Positions 1 through 6,291 of a DNA stretch of 64,000 nt are shown piece by piece. A program made the translations under genes and the position numbers. The notes under the pieces were generated by a model. That model was not told the origin of the DNA, searched no databases, and was given only the letters and a program-made list of their open reading frames with translations. Numbering within the stretch: the stretch's first letter is position 1; each line of letters starts with the position of its first letter. Origin of the DNA: Bacteroidota bacterium (GTDB lineage: Bacteria > Bacteroidota > Rhodothermia > JANXDC01); assembly GCA_025998875.1 (NCBI GenBank), contig AP024675.1, forward strand, positions 1,833,549-1,897,548, in the 5' to 3' direction.

Positions 1-1619
1 GCTGGAACGAAGCAGAGGCTGTCCAGGAAGCCAAGGTCGGGATTGACCAGGAGGATTACCTTCTGTTCAAACTAAGCGGCAAGAACCTCGATCAGGGGAG
101 GCTTGTGAAGTCCCCTTCCTGGGGCTCATATCTCGTGATAGCTCCAGATACCTGGGAACGAGACGAGACATTGTCGGGACCCGCACCAGTCATGCCCGAG
201 CAGGTGTCATTAGCTGGCTTCAAGGCTCACTTCTTTGAGCTTGATAAGAATGGAGACCAAGATATTGCTTTTCGGACTCCAAATGGGGAGTCAAAAGTTA
301 TAAAGAAAAAGGCAAATAGATTTGAATTAATTGGGATAAGAATAGATGATGTAATTGATAAAATAGGTCCTATATTTTTAGAAGGACATCCTCGCATTCT
401 CGATATGAATGAAAAAAAATGGAAGGGTGTTAAGACAATAGTTGTTGGTGAAGAAGGTAGTGGTAGAAAAAGGTGGAAAATTTCTTTTACTCCTGATCAT
501 AATAAAAATGAGCAAGATTTTCCTTCAGATTTTTTAGAGAAAAAAATTGGATGGTATTTTGTTAGATTTTATGATGATAAAAATAATCTTATAGATAGCT
601 TAGATTTTAGATTAATTACCTGTCTCAAAGAAATTAAATTACCTGTATTGGGCATATTTCCATATAGAGATGGATATAAATCAGTACATGTAGAATTAAT
701 TCATGCTAAAGATTGTATTATCAAGCCAGAAAATAATAAAAAAAATATACAAATTGAAATAAAAGATGATAGAACGATTCTTACCGTTCCTCCTGATCCT
801 GATTATGATCTTAGTTATTGGTTGGTTTCTCTAGGAAATGATAATTTACAAGTTAAAATAGGGATCCTTGTGGAAAGAATTTGGTGGACACTGGGAGAAG
901 TGAATCATGTACCATCTCAATGGAGCGATAGACTAGTTGTGCTCTCTCGTGATGACTTTGCTGCCACGTCAAACAAAGCGTTGTGGTTACGACTTCCAAG
1001 ACGCCGCTGGATAGACAAGGTCCTTGTAGGTTTCGAACGATCAAAAGCCAGGCCGTATAATGTAAGAATAACAGAGAATACAATTGTTGTTCCACTTCGT
1101 GACTTTGTTGATTCTCAAGAAATAAGCAATAAGGTGAGGGATTATTTTTTCAAGATATGGATCGAGCGTGACAACGAGTTTCATGAAGGGATTATTGCGA
1201 TTATTCGATCATCGAAATATTTGGAATATTTCAAATTTGGATATGGAAGAAAAAAAACCGCCATCGCAAAAGCAACTATCCAAAATGGATCAGGGACAAT
1301 CAAAATCAATGGGCATGATTGGCGTTATTATTTCAGGACAGCTCCTCCCAAAGCCAGGCAATTCTTAGAAAAGTTAATTGAAATGAAGGAAGTGCAAGAA
1401 AAATTATCAAAACATGAAATCAATATTATCGTTCATGGGAGTCATCCGACGACCATGCGGCAACCGAAAGCAGTGGCCCATGCTATAGCAAGAGCTTTAA
1501 TGAATTATGATCCTTGTCTGGCACCTTTGTTGAGACAGGCAGGATTTGGAGGAGTCAAAGTGAAAGTTTCCGACAGGAGGATAAGCGATGAATCTAATAG
1601 AAATAGCAAGTCAGATTGA
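1..1619 (+). CDS. Partial protein with C-terminal ribosomal uS9-like domain, paired with a DUF1998 helicase
   Basis: The reading frame is open from the window's first complete codon (base 3), so the true start lies upstream; the GTG at 105 is only an internal candidate. About 415 residues before the tail are beta-rich and not recognised. From about base 1239 to 1616 the protein aligns with ribosomal protein uS9: GRKKTAIAKA (1245-1274), INGHDWRYYF (1305-1334), AIARALMNYD (1482-1511) and LLRQAGF (1527-1547) match uS9 blocks in order and spacing. Several positions, such as KTAIAKATI and the SK-I-I-V-G strand, look closer to archaeal than bacterial uS9. The usual basic SKR tail is replaced by SKSD. 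Bases about 290-880 are strikingly AT-rich compared with the flanks. The gene overlaps the helicase start by 32 bases, so the two are probably translated together. The fold call rests on reading the motifs; the function is unknown and no role in the ribosome is implied. Confidence 0.8.
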   Translation, partial: WNEAEAVQEAKVGIDQEDYLLFKLSGKNLDQGRLVKSPSWGSYLVIAPDTWERDETLSGPAPVMPEQVSLAGFKAHFFELDKNGDQDIAFRTPNGESKVIKKKANRFELIGIRIDDVIDKIGPIFLEGHPRILDMNEKKWKGVKTIVVGEEGSGRKRWKISFTPDHNKNEQDFPSDFLEKKIGWYFVRFYDDKNNLIDSLDFRLITCLKEIKLPVLGIFPYRDGYKSVHVELIHAKDCIIKPENNKKNIQIEIKDDRTILTVPPDPDYDLSYWLVSLGNDNLQVKIGILVERIWWTLGEVNHVPSQWSDRLVVLSRDDFAATSNKALWLRLPRRRWIDKVLVGFERSKARPYNVRITENTIVVPLRDFVDSQEISNKVRDYFFKIWIERDNEFHEGIIAIIRSSKYLEYFKFGYGRKKTAIAKATIQNGSGTIKINGHDWRYYFRTAPPKARQFLEKLIEMKEVQEKLSKHEINIIVHGSHPTTMRQPKAVAHAIARALMNYDPCLAPLLRQAGFGGVKVKVSDRRISDESNRNSKSD

Positions 1620-4600
1620 GGAAAGGTATCGTCGCTATCTGAAAACCACCTTTCACTTCAGAGACCCGGAATTCCGTAGGTCTTTTGAACAAGCGTTGGA
1701 CTCGGGCCATCTGAGCAAGGGGCCATACCTTGAAGCCACGCCGGTCTTCAAACGTGGCCAGAGGCCGCGTGAGTTGTTCGCGAATCTGCTTGGATTCCAG
1801 CCAGATGAGGGCTTTCTGAAGGCAGTGCAGGGTGATAGACCTCTTTATCAACATCAGGAAGAAGCAATCTCCAGAGTGTTCAAAGGAAGCAACATAGTTG
1901 TAGCTACAGGCACAGGAAGCGGAAAAACCGAGGCGTTTCTATACCCTATCCTGTTGCATCTTTATCGGGAATTCCGAGCAGGGAAGTTGTGTTGTGGAGT
2001 AAGAGCGCTCATCCTGTATCCGATGAACGCCCTGGCAAACGATCAGCGGGAACGCTTGGGAGAAATTTGTAAGCACCTAAAGGAAGCGAACTCTCCTTTC
2101 CGCTTCACCTTCGGGCAGTATATCGGAGAAACACCTGAAGATGAGAACGATTCTCAGCGACATGCGCGAGATCACCTGGCCGAGCGGGACCAGAAAGGTT
2201 ATTCCCTTATTGAAAGTGGGCACGTTGTGCATGGAGAATTGGTTCTTCGCTCTGAAATGCGCCGCACACCGCCCCATATCCTCCTGACCAACTATTCGAT
2301 GCTGGAGTATCTATTGCTCCGGCCTGACGATAGCCCGCTCTTTGACAACGGGCGCGCTCGGTGGTGGACATTCCTTGTACTTGATGAGGCCCATCAATAC
2401 CGGGGATCACGCGGCGTTGAGATGGCCATGTTGCTACGCCGCCTCAAGCAAAGACTGCGTGAAGGCGGCCGTTCAGAGGCGTTCCGCTGTATTGCGACCA
2501 GTGCGACACTGGTTGGTGGAGAAAGTGACAAAGCAGCCGTCGCGAGGTTCGCCTCAGATTTATTTGGTGAGGAATTTCGTACAGAGGATGTAATCCTGGG
2601 AGAGACAATCCCAGTGCCTGAACCTGGTCCGAGAGAACTGTCCCGCGAAGATTATCGTTCGCTCAAAGACCTTCTCCAAGAAGGGGTCGTGCAAAACGTG
2701 GGTCAACTTGCTGCAATCGCAAGCAAGGTGGGTGTATCGCTTCCAAATAGGGAGGAAGCGGCAAGGATAGTCGGAAGGATTCTTCAAAACGACGGCAGGG
2801 CAACTACTCTTCGACGCTTGATCACAGGTAATCCGGCTGAAGTTCAGAAAGTCGCCGATGACGTCTTTGTCGATCTGCCACAAGAAGAGCGAGTGCCCGC
2901 GTTGTCCGAATTGGTTGAGCTTCTACTGCAAGCGAAGGATCCCTCCTCGGGTGCTCCTCTGTTGTCTGCTCGCTATCATCTCTTCCTTCGCTCTCTGGAG
3001 GGTGCTTTTGTTTCTCTCTGGCCTGAGAAAAAAGTGTTCCTGGATCGAAAAACAATCGGAGCAGGGGGCGCTGCCTTCGAAGTGGCGTTATGTCGGGAGT
3101 GTGGTCAGCATTATTTTGTGGCCCAAAAGAATTTTAATGGTGGTAAGATTCAAGAGGCAATCCGAGATCCAAACGACGTCAATTTCGGAGCGACGTTTCT
3201 TCGACCTATTGAAAGTGAGGAGGATACAAGCACGGATGACGAAGATGTGAATCTCACAGAGAAGGCAACATTTTACCTTTGCGTGCAATGTGGCGAGGCA
3301 CGACGAACAAAACCAGCCTGCGGACACGATAACTATATCCGTGTTGTCAAGGAAGAAACTCCCGACGATGAAGATCGTGCTGACCAGATTGCGAAATGCG
3401 GTGCCTGTGGGTATTCCGCCGCTGGGCGCGATCCCGTTCGGGAGGTTGTGCATGGCACGGATGGTCCTCACGCAGTGATAGTCACGACTCTCTACCAATA
3501 CCTTCCAGAAAGGCGCAAGAAGGTGCTCGCTTTTGCCGATGGACGACAGGAGGCGGCATTTTTCGCGTGGTATCTTGAGGAGTCATATCAAGATATTCTG
3601 AGCCGCAATTTACTTCTCAAGGTTATGCAAGAGTTAAGCCCGCATACGCAAGAGGGTTTATCATTACGAGAAGTGGCAACAAGTCTACGGGATCTTCTCC
3701 GCAAGCGTCATGTCTCTCGACCATCTATGGGAGACCTACAGCTACGGCGTCAAGCCTGGTGCAGACTATATCGCGAATTTCTTACAGACGAGCCAAGGAT
3801 ATCTTTAGAGGGTGTTGGTCTAGTTTGGTGTTGCATCAAGTGGCCGAATTGGTTCAAGATCCCAGAAGCCTTGACGAATCCGCCCTGGTCACTCAGCGAG
3901 CAAGAAGCACGTGATTTAGTATTACTTCTGTTAGACACAATGCGAGCTGACAGAGCGGTTGAACTTCGTACAGAGGAAGGCGTCTCTCTGAGCTGGAATG
4001 ATCTGAATCTCCAGACGTCGCAAATGTGCTTCCGCATCGGCGATCCCAAAGGGAAGAAGAGCGTGCGTAGCTGGGATGGCAAGCAAGGGAAGCGTGCTCG
4101 CTTCTTGGCTAAACTGCTTATGAAGATCAAAAGCGATCTCTCTGGGCAAGAAGCCATCAACGAGGCTGTAAAGATCTTGAGAGAGATATGGGAGGCTATA
4201 AGGCAGACTGATGAACAGGCCCCTTCTTCCTCTGACCGTCTGCTCTTGTCCGTAGATGACGCCCGTAGGCTAAATCCTGATTGGTGGAGACTACATTTCC
4301 TCACCAGTGTTGACACCATCTATCAGTGTGACACCTGCGGCCGCCTTCAGGCCATCTCGGTCCGCGGAGTGTGTCCAAGGCATCGCTGCCCAGGGACGCT
4401 CAGACTAGTGCAGGTAAGTAACCTGGAGCCCAACCACTACCGGTCTCTTTACGAAGAGGATCTGCCTGGGATGTTGCGCGTGGAGGAGCACACAGCACAG
4501 CTTGATAAAGAAAAGGCTCGGGAGTTTCAAAGAGAGTTTCGAAACGGCAATATTCATGTATTGAGTTGCTCGACGACTTTTGAATTAGGCGTAGACCTGG

Positions 4601-6291
4601 GTGACCTCGACGTGATCTTTCTTCGCAACGTTCCCCCGGAGTCGTTTAATTACACACAACGAGTGGGAAGAACCGGACGGCGAAGTGGATACCCTGGATT
4701 TGCTCTCACCTACTGTCGCCGTAGCCCCCATGACCTTTACCACTTTTCTGAGCCAGAGCGGATGCTGGTCGGAAAAGTGCGCCCTCCAGTATTAACGTTG
4801 CGAAACGAGAAGATCCTTACTCGGCATATTGTAGCAGTGACACTATCTCGCTTTTTCCGTGTTTTTCCAGATAGGTTCAAGACCGTGGAGAGCTTATTCA
4901 AAGATCTGATTAATCCATCTGGAGTCAAAGATTTTAAGAATTTTATCCAAAAGCATAGAAGTGAAATAGAAAAATCTATACGTGAGATTGTTCCAGATAA
5001 TATGATAAGTCAACTTGGATTAGACAATGGAACCTGGGTGGATAAGGTCGCTGGCAATGAGAGTCGATTCTATCTAGCTGAGGCTGAGGTCTCAAGTGAC
5101 TACTACACGGCAATCAAGTTTGAGGAGAATGCTCGGAACGAAAGGAAATATCAAGATGCAGATTGGGCACGGAGACGGGCGGATACGATCGCATCAGAAG
5201 ATGTTCTCTCCTTTCTCTCCCGCAAGGCTGTGATTCCGAAGTATGGCTTCCCTGTGGATGTGGTGGAATTGGATACACAAAGAACCCAACAGAGCCAGGA
5301 AGGGTTTGAAGTCATGCTCCAAAGGGACCTCAGCATCGCCATTGCCGAGTTTGCCCCCACCAGTAAACTGGTGGCGAATAAGAAGGTGTGGACATCCTAC
5401 GGACTCAAGAAGGTGGCCGAGAAGGAGTGGCCACGGAAATTCTATAAGCGATGCCCTCAGCATGGTATGTTCGTTCAGTGGACACCTGGTGAACCTGAGC
5501 CCGTAGGAGTCTGCTGTAGCCGAATGAGGAAAGGGACATATCTTGTTCCACATTTTGGATTTGTCACCGATCGCGAAAAGCCGAAGAAGCCAAGATCTCG
5601 CACTCCCAGGGTATTTACAACGCGTCCCTATTTTGCAGGCCGTCCCACCGGTTCTGAGCCTGCTGAAATCACCCTGCCCTTGCGCTCCCCACTAATCACC
5701 CTGAAAAAGGCATCCCCAGGCTATATGGTCGTGCTATGCGAGGGCAGACGAGGGGAAGGATTCTATATCTGTCGTGAATGTGGCGCGGGATTCAGAAAAA
5801 AAGAGAGAACTCATAAGACACCTTATGGCCAAGATTGTTGTGGAACGCTCGAACAGGTTTTTCTCGGACATGAGTTTGTGACGGATGTGCTACAATTGCA
5901 ATTTGAACAAGCGTATGAAGGAAATAATTCTGTATGGTTTTCCTACTCGCTCGCATACGCACTGGTCGAAGGAGCTGCGGATATTTTAGATGTTCCCCCT
6001 ACCGACTTAAGCGCTACAGTGTCTTATGATGAGAGACTCTCTGTGCTCCCGATAATCCTTTATGATAATATACCAGGAGGGGCAGGTCTTGTCGCTCGGC
6101 TTGAAAGCGAAGATATGATGAAATCTTGCTTGGAGGCTGCGAAAAATCGTGTTATCGGAAAATGTGGCTGTGAAGAAAATACGAGCTGTTATGGATGTTT
6201 AAGAAATTATCATAATCAATTTGTTCATCAATATCTTCAGAGGGGTCCAGTGATGTGCTATTTGAAAGAACTACTCTTGAAATGGCAATGA
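1588..6291 (+). CDS. Large DEAH-box helicase with zinc ribbons and C-terminal DUF1998
   Basis: This is a 1567-residue superfamily 2 helicase, probably a DNA translocase in a defence or repair complex. Visible motifs are YQHQ (87-90), Walker A ATGTGSGKT (106-114), DEAH (266-269), SAT (305-307) and motif VI QRVGRTGR (1024-1031). The long spacer between the two RecA lobes carries CxxC pairs near residues 502, 565, 604 and 914, and another lies near 1395, consistent with inserted zinc ribbons. The end has the DUF1998 cysteine cluster CxCx5CxxC (C1526, C1528, C1534, C1537), as in MrfA, DrmB and DruE-type proteins. The start at 1588 is fixed by AGGAGG at 1575-1580. No nuclease domain is evident. 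DISARM would need separate DrmA/B/C genes, which are not seen. A Druantia-type relationship (a large DUF1998 helicase with an upstream partner) is possible but not demonstrated. Confidence 0.9.
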   Translation: MNLIEIASQIEERYRRYLKTTFHFRDPEFRRSFEQALDSGHLSKGPYLEATPVFKRGQRPRELFANLLGFQPDEGFLKAVQGDRPLYQHQEEAISRVFKGSNIVVATGTGSGKTEAFLYPILLHLYREFRAGKLCCGVRALILYPMNALANDQRERLGEICKHLKEANSPFRFTFGQYIGETPEDENDSQRHARDHLAERDQKGYSLIESGHVVHGELVLRSEMRRTPPHILLTNYSMLEYLLLRPDDSPLFDNGRARWWTFLVLDEAHQYRGSRGVEMAMLLRRLKQRLREGGRSEAFRCIATSATLVGGESDKAAVARFASDLFGEEFRTEDVILGETIPVPEPGPRELSREDYRSLKDLLQEGVVQNVGQLAAIASKVGVSLPNREEAARIVGRILQNDGRATTLRRLITGNPAEVQKVADDVFVDLPQEERVPALSELVELLLQAKDPSSGAPLLSARYHLFLRSLEGAFVSLWPEKKVFLDRKTIGAGGAAFEVALCRECGQHYFVAQKNFNGGKIQEAIRDPNDVNFGATFLRPIESEEDTSTDDEDVNLTEKATFYLCVQCGEARRTKPACGHDNYIRVVKEETPDDEDRADQIAKCGACGYSAAGRDPVREVVHGTDGPHAVIVTTLYQYLPERRKKVLAFADGRQEAAFFAWYLEESYQDILSRNLLLKVMQELSPHTQEGLSLREVATSLRDLLRKRHVSRPSMGDLQLRRQAWCRLYREFLTDEPRISLEGVGLVWCCIKWPNWFKIPEALTNPPWSLSEQEARDLVLLLLDTMRADRAVELRTEEGVSLSWNDLNLQTSQMCFRIGDPKGKKSVRSWDGKQGKRARFLAKLLMKIKSDLSGQEAINEAVKILREIWEAIRQTDEQAPSSSDRLLLSVDDARRLNPDWWRLHFLTSVDTIYQCDTCGRLQAISVRGVCPRHRCPGTLRLVQVSNLEPNHYRSLYEEDLPGMLRVEEHTAQLDKEKAREFQREFRNGNIHVLSCSTTFELGVDLGDLDVIFLRNVPPESFNYTQRVGRTGRRSGYPGFALTYCRRSPHDLYHFSEPERMLVGKVRPPVLTLRNEKILTRHIVAVTLSRFFRVFPDRFKTVESLFKDLINPSGVKDFKNFIQKHRSEIEKSIREIVPDNMISQLGLDNGTWVDKVAGNESRFYLAEAEVSSDYYTAIKFEENARNERKYQDADWARRRADTIASEDVLSFLSRKAVIPKYGFPVDVVELDTQRTQQSQEGFEVMLQRDLSIAIAEFAPTSKLVANKKVWTSYGLKKVAEKEWPRKFYKRCPQHGMFVQWTPGEPEPVGVCCSRMRKGTYLVPHFGFVTDREKPKKPRSRTPRVFTTRPYFAGRPTGSEPAEITLPLRSPLITLKKASPGYMVVLCEGRRGEGFYICRECGAGFRKKERTHKTPYGQDCCGTLEQVFLGHEFVTDVLQLQFEQAYEGNNSVWFSYSLAYALVEGAADILDVPPTDLSATVSYDERLSVLPIILYDNIPGGAGLVARLESEDMMKSCLEAAKNRVIGKCGCEENTSCYGCLRNYHNQFVHQYLQRGPVMCYLKELLLKWQ

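What the first reader, a model, noticed from the sequence alone, without database searches (positions are those of the whole stretch)
1239..1619. Ribosomal uS9-like domain as the C-terminus of a helicase-operon protein
The last ~120 residues of the first gene align block by block with ribosomal protein uS9 (GxGRKKTxIAKAxI, IxINGxDWxxYF, IVxG, AxxxAIARALMxYDPxL, LRxAGF, then DRR), with archaeal-looking positions. They sit behind an unrelated beta-rich region of at least 415 residues and overlap a DUF1998 helicase gene. I know of no described system joining a uS9-like domain to such a helicase. Ideas: an RNA/DNA-binding module recruited from the ribosome, a ribosome-docking device that links immunity to translation, or a decoy of a ribosomal component. 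The basic SKR tail that touches P-site tRNA in real uS9 is missing, so a plain ribosomal role is unlikely.
Basis: partly seen in the sequence, partly recalled or inferred. Interest (0 to 1): 0.88.

Follow-up and report, generated by a model that had tools for sequence, protein, structure and literature searches.

The report
Swappable ribosomal-protein tail on Druantia-like partner
The gene belongs to a two-gene, Druantia-like system that probably defends bacteria against viruses; its last ~115 residues are a reshaped copy of a ribosomal protein, and relatives carry other interchangeable, probably nucleic-acid-binding modules in the same place, including a second ribosomal protein that bacterial ribosomes do not have.

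Summary
Confirmed: the C-terminus of the first gene (window ~1236-1568) is a uS9-fold domain (Pfam S9, 54.7 bits, cut-off 22.5; AlphaFold/Foldseek match to ribosomal uS9). The gene is 771 aa (it starts 5' of the window): N-terminal transmembrane helix, disordered linker, ~465 aa of tandem Ig-like domains, then the uS9-like module. It overlaps a DruE/YprA-family helicase gene (1588-6291): a two-gene Druantia III-like locus. The host also has a normal rpsI.

The wider finding: about 60 relatives of the Ig core, nearly all directly upstream of DruE, end in recurrent alternative modules: uS9-like (five distinct), eL13-like (about 24; Pfam L13e, an archaeal/eukaryotic ribosomal protein), multi-zinc-finger (about 19), basic helical (about 6). 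A sister pair with 80%-identical DruE and 50-70%-identical cores carries unrelated tails. The fused uS9 domains form one clade outside all sampled rpsI, yet their cores do not (AU p=0.012).

Best reading: an exchangeable nucleic-acid-binding specificity module on a DruH-like sensor/adaptor working with DruE. This mechanism is inferred. Ribosome docking as a general rule is unlikely, because eL13 has no bacterial ribosomal site. No homology to canonical DruH was found, and I found no prior description of such modules.

The parts
1..1619 (+). Partner gene of the system (residues 234-771 of 771; the gene starts 697 bases 5' of the window, genome C1:1832852)
   Evidence: open frame; homologues upstream of DruE
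1..1211 (+). Tandem Ig-like core (protein residues ~170-636; its first part lies outside the window)
   Evidence: AlphaFold; Foldseek to titin/DSCAM Ig chains; conserved core alignment
1236..1568 (+). uS9-like C-terminal module (residues ~645-755)
   Evidence: PF00380; structure; PDB; clade
1588..6291 (+). DruE/YprA-family SF2 helicase, 1567 aa, 32-nt overlap with the partner gene
   Evidence: PADLOC DruE1 628.9 bits; Pfam DEAD, Helicase_C, MZB
1909..1929 (+). Walker A motif GTGSGKT of the helicase (residues 108-114)
2383..2394 (+). DEAH box of the helicase (residues 266-269)
5950..6201 (+). MrfA zinc-binding (MZB/DUF1998) domain, residues 1455-1538; no nuclease domain follows
   Evidence: PF09369 37.6 bits

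Best explanation
The locus is a horizontally acquired two-gene antiphage system of the Druantia III-like/YprA class. The first gene is a predicted membrane-anchored partner made of tandem Ig-like domains that ends in an exchangeable C-terminal module. In this copy the module is an exapted, tail-less uS9 domain. I propose that the module is a nucleic-acid-binding specificity part: it binds a structured RNA or DNA feature present during infection and so brings the SF2 helicase DruE to that target or licenses it there, while the Ig stalk senses or scaffolds. SHOWN: uS9 identity, Ig core, DruE identity, tail exchange, one clade of fused uS9 domains, separate rpsI. INFERRED: antiphage function (from tested DruH-DruE systems, PMC13192584 and PMC13316683), nucleic-acid binding by the tail, and its role in directing DruE.
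For: uS9 fold; DruE identity; Ig core. Same position holds uS9, eL13, zinc-finger or basic helical modules; two are rRNA binders by family and C2H2-type fingers are usually nucleic-acid binders; uS9 and helical tails are strongly basic, mean net charge about +12. Tails change on a core tree 11-12 times; sister pair L165 (uS9)/L029 (zinc fingers), 100/96 support, DruE 80% identical, identity falls sharply at the tail. Fused uS9 one clade 100/99 while their cores are not (p-AU 0.012). The fused uS9 keeps GRKK but loses the P-site tail. Every uS9-tailed genome tested has its own rpsI. Low GC against host. Published type III: DruH likely sensor, DruE helicase.
Against: No binding or defence data. 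Zinc-finger tails are not basic (mean net charge -2) and could bind protein; the large eL13 clade lacks the TM anchor. Partner has no detectable homology to canonical DruH, so its role is transferred by position and by domain type only.
Confidence: 0.55

Rival explanations
1. The tails recognise phage proteins (or DruE itself) rather than nucleic acid: old ribosomal folds and zinc fingers reused as protein-binding surfaces, diversified by the arms race as proposed for the Ig domains of DruH.
For: DruH is thought to sense a phage baseplate protein (PMC13192584); Ig-like domains are protein binders; zinc-finger tails are near neutral; rapid exchange of tails fits an arms race.
Against: Two independent modules come from rRNA-binding proteins and keep their basic character (uS9 and most eL13 tails); GRKK and Q80 of uS9 are kept in the fused copies.
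Confidence: 0.25
2. Ribosome docking: the uS9-like module attaches the partner to the 30S subunit (or its precursor), coupling immunity to translation.
For: Clear uS9 homology and fold.
Against: The equivalent position elsewhere holds eL13, which bacterial ribosomes lack, or zinc fingers; tail and GGG loop, near-universal in rpsI, are lost or replaced; ordinary rpsI is present. Could still hold for the uS9 subgroup alone.
Confidence: 0.1
3. Decoy: the module imitates a host ribosomal protein that phage factors attack, so that attack on the decoy triggers the system.
For: An integrated-decoy logic would explain why host-like proteins sit in an immune protein.
Against: eL13 is not a host protein in bacteria; the fused uS9 is far from its host's own rpsI (long stem).
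Confidence: 0.05
4. Chance or chimeric junction without function (assembly artefact or one-off fusion).
For: Most relatives lack a uS9 tail.
Against: The host genome is one complete contig; the same fusion occurs in four further distinct systems, with shared own residues such as AGFGG and RQ.
Confidence: 0.01

Closest known systems
Druantia type III (DruH-DruE)
   Same: Two co-directional genes, large Ig-containing partner upstream of a DruE/YprA helicase; the published M. smegmatis pair overlaps by 17 bp, this one by 32 nt.
   Different: Partner has no detectable sequence homology to E. coli DruH (hhalign probability 0.2%) or to any PADLOC DruH model; it is smaller (771 aa against ~1100), has a TM anchor and exchangeable tails; DruE lacks the PLD nuclease region (1567 aa against 2114 aa in E. 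coli).
Druantia III-like branch ('III-B') of Bell et al. 2025, PMC12458937
   Same: DruE-like helicase, most often without nuclease.
   Different: I could not place this helicase on the published tree; the main text names neither DruH nor any ribosomal domain.
Ribosomal protein uS9 (bacterial)
   Same: Fold and first ~94 Pfam positions.
   Different: No SKR tail, altered GGG loop, insertions, fused to an Ig protein, own clade.
Ribosomal protein eL13 (archaea, eukaryotes)
   Same: Sibling tails match its central GFS..EL..AG...DKRRR segment (PF01294 and PDB eL13 chains).
   Different: Only that ~50-residue segment, in bacteria, at the end of the same Ig-core partner; absent from the window copy.

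Membership tests
Druantia type III | DruE helicase: DEAD/DEAH, Helicase_C, MZB (DUF1998) | tested here: met
Druantia type III | Partner is DruH (PADLOC models, homology to E. coli DruH) | tested here: not met
   no PADLOC match for 43 partners; hhalign probability 0.2%; control: E. coli DruH matches at 1830 bits
Druantia type III | Two-gene co-directional operon, partner first | tested here: met
   no conserved third gene except in four closely related loci
Druantia type III | Ig-like domains in the partner | tested here: met
   Foldseek to tandem Ig chains; domain type only
Druantia type III | C-terminal PLD nuclease domains on DruE | tested here: not met
   no Pfam domain after MZB; 29 residues remain
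Druantia type III | Antiphage activity | not testable with these tools
   needs plaque assays
Ribosomal protein uS9 | Pfam S9 over its curated cut-off and uS9 fold | tested here: met
Ribosomal protein uS9 | NCBIfam equivalog cut-off (true ribosomal S9) | tested here: not met
   56.3 against 112 bits; 37.8 against 147; 37.2 against 162.75
Ribosomal protein uS9 | Basic C-terminal tail ending in KR | tested here: not met
   57 of 57 rpsI have it, 0 of 4 fused copies
Ribosomal protein uS9 | The genome's only uS9 | tested here: not met
   separate rpsI at C1:1214635
Ribosomal protein eL13 (sibling tails) | Pfam L13e over cut-off and match to eL13 of solved ribosomes | tested here: met
   43.8, 32.3 and 30.8 bits against 24.9; 9e6q_AH 5.2e-15; four divergent tails (L076-L078, L084) were assigned by motif only, and L077's gave no L13e match

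The most novel reading that the evidence does not exclude
A family of Druantia-like immune partners has repeatedly captured ribosomal proteins, including one absent from bacterial ribosomes, as interchangeable RNA/RNP-recognition tails, so that infection is recognised through a structured RNA or ribonucleoprotein state and handed to a helicase of a family so far shown to act on DNA.
Probability: 0.3. Interest if true: 0.9.

Novelty: new variant of a known kind. Interest (0 to 1): 0.78.

Why it matters
What sets the specificity of Druantia-type systems is open; for type III, DruH is only a likely sensor (PMC13192584). Here is a natural series in which helicase and scaffold stay similar and only a ~50-160 residue tail changes, which makes specificity testable by domain swap. 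It also shows ribosomal proteins exapted as immune modules, and an eL13-like domain in bacteria that, in 743 genomes sampled from two phyla, was seen only in this family.

Tried and rejected
Genome-contig scan with the single partner protein: no hit; solved by scanning with DruE. Plasmids: only rpsI-type matches listed for the partner, none for an eL13 tail. Viral contigs with the core: none; with DruE: nine distant helicases at 28-36% identity. PADLOC and PHROGs for the partner: nothing. Archaeal origin of the uS9 domain: not supported, though no archaeal uS9 was put in a tree. The first uS9 tree held wrong-frame rows and was redone. Alignment A7 was made with a wrong reference and is not used. 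The DotG/IcmE hits at the top are a repeat artefact. Helical tail: no Pfam match, no convincing PDB sequence match, no fold match. Third gene: none conserved except in four closely related Acidobacteriota loci. Sampling of Acidobacteriota genomes with the core failed twice for technical reasons.

Full report
OBSERVATION. The C-terminal part of the first gene matches PF00380 (54.7 bits, cut-off 22.5, profile 1-94/121); no other Pfam family matched the window part of the protein. A genome-wide search shows the same domain and one ordinary rpsI of 178 bits in the single 2.35 Mb contig. The gene starts 5' of the window; complete it is 771 aa and overlaps the next gene by 32 nt. phmmer against the PDB lists uS9 chains, best 3.5e-12, bacterial before archaeal. 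NCBIfam agrees: bacterial model 56.3 bits, archaeal 37.8 and 37.2, all below their equivalog cut-offs.

ANATOMY. AlphaFold (43-sequence alignment, mean pLDDT 80.8) gives a helix at 2-38, disorder at about 40-167, a beta-rich core at ~170-636 and the alpha/beta tail at 645-755. The helix carries a strongly hydrophobic stretch (Kyte-Doolittle 2.69). Foldseek matches the core to tandem-Ig proteins (titin, DSCAM) and the tail to ribosomal uS9 with probability 1.0 and TM-score to target about 0.6-0.7. Whole-chain matches to the core have large rmsd, so they show the domain type, not an orthologous arrangement.

THE HELICASE. The second gene is DruE-like: PADLOC DruE1 6.9e-189, DruE3 1.2e-161, with DEAD, Helicase_C and MZB and intact motifs. 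It ends soon after MZB, without a nuclease match. Two 2026 reports describe DruH-DruE as a tested antiphage pair; one names DruH as likely sensor with Ig-like domains and DruE as helicase-nuclease (PMC13192584, PMC13316683). A YprA survey describes a Druantia III-like branch that most often lacks nucleases (PMC12458937). The partner here is not DruH by sequence.

RELATIVES AND TAILS. Scanning bacterial and archaeal genomes with a four-sequence DruE alignment gave 448 relatives, best 80 kept. A profile of the partner core finds homologues in about 57 of these loci, nearly all just upstream of DruE. After the core come tails of mostly 77-200 residues in recurrent classes: uS9-like in the window, L035/L036 (identical tails), L043 and L061; eL13-like in about 24 loci plus G056, often behind one more Ig-like domain; several zinc-finger motifs in about 19; basic helical in about 6; a few others. 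Class labels were assigned by me from motifs; Pfam independently finds S9 in 5 and L13e in 17 of 56 tails scanned, and examples exceed the curated cut-offs. The eL13 profile hits the eL13 chain 9e6q_AH at 5e-15 and many eukaryotic eL13. A fifth distinct uS9-tailed system turned up in a sample of the phylum of G405 (the genome of L067, titled Limisphaerales, Verrucomicrobiota) at 66.3 bits, followed by a DruE 74% identical to the window's.

THE TAIL IS EXCHANGED. On a tree of cores alone, 11-12 changes of tail class are needed (minimum 4). L165 (uS9) and L029 (zinc fingers) are sisters at 100/96; their DruE are 80% identical and partner identity falls from 50-70% to about 20-30% in the tail, where the alignment is gappy. 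The window core is 51% identical to both L030 (zinc-finger tail) and L061 (uS9 tail), and identity to L030 drops from 75% (residues 553-593) to 13-15% beyond ~632. The eL13-tailed L037/L039/L040 lie within the other main clade, away from the large eL13 clade, on starred branches. Fused uS9 domains form one clade, 100/99, outside all 57 sampled bacterial rpsI, while holding their four cores together costs 31.5 log-likelihood units, p-AU 0.012. That test was chosen after the first core tree had been seen, so its p-value is somewhat flattering. One gain plus several losses is not excluded, but exchange explains the sister pair most simply.

NOT A RIBOSOMAL PROTEIN NOW. Fused copies keep G8, R9, K11, A15, G22, N29, Y36/F37, G72, Q80 and AL91-92 (numbering of the 131-residue domain) but replace the GGG loop by GSxP with a two-residue insertion, add ~5 residues after the YF motif, and lose the RDxRxVERKKxGxxKAR...KR tail that is near-universal in the 57 rpsI. 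From general knowledge that tail reaches P-site tRNA. In ~300 Chloroflexota genomes the fused-uS9 profile scores the known fused copy at 188 bits and the ordinary rpsI at 59 or less. PF01294 is found in 1 of 394 genomes of the window's phylum, and that one is G056's partner protein (21.1 bits, below the curated cut-off, E 4.6e-4). The eL13-tail profile is found in 1 of 349 genomes of the phylum of G406 (Pseudomonadota by L080's title), again the known partner. L13e is described as a patchy archaeal r-protein shared with eukaryotes (PMC3353972).

MECHANISM. The common denominator of uS9, eL13 and zinc-finger tails is more likely nucleic-acid binding than the ribosome, since bacterial ribosomes have no eL13. 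I therefore favour an exchangeable nucleic-acid-recognition module that helps choose the target of, or licenses, DruE, carried on an Ig scaffold that in many members has a TM anchor (mostly absent in the large eL13 clade). Recognition of a phage protein by the tail is the strongest rival. Nothing here measures binding or defence.

CONTEXT. GC falls from ~65% to 34-52% across both genes, and among 100 relatives only two others carry the partner core, as expected of a transferred locus.

LIMITS. Tail classes of truncated or frameshifted MAG genes are approximate; the best-80 cut biases towards close relatives; absence in the literature means absence from an open-access library and from main texts, not from supplements, which could not be read.

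Noticed in passing
L037, L039, L040, L060, L063, L065-L068, L070-L072, L074, L075, L079, L080, L083, L086, L091, L100 (C-termini): Ribosomal eL13-like segment, a protein of archaeal and eukaryotic ribosomes, at the end of bacterial DruE-partner proteins; L083 carries a ~65-residue insertion inside it.
   Followed up: yes
G129 (L026), L031, L033, L034, L045, L051 tails: Basic, predicted all-helical C-terminal module (model pLDDT 82) with no Pfam or PDB fold match; unknown nature.
   Followed up: partly
L032 1187-4858: ORFs that look like type III-B CRISPR (Cmr) genes lie just upstream of the partner gene in a Bacillota MAG; recognised by eye only.
   Followed up: no
L076, L077, L078, L084 (Acidobacteriota): Partners with ~800-900 residues before the Ig core and a strongly diverged eL13-like tail.
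   Followed up: no
L030, L034, L058, L082: DruE appears split or frameshifted in these MAG contigs: the longest helicase ORF starts well after the N-terminal match.
   Followed up: no
L003:11164-11853 (just 5' of the partner gene): Methyltransferase-like ORF whose C-terminal half looks like out-of-frame or unrelated sequence, perhaps a remnant at the insertion edge of the low-GC island.
   Followed up: partly
L081 926-3097: Partner with a second, partly repeated core segment and a zinc-ribbon-like tail (Poribacteria).
   Followed up: no
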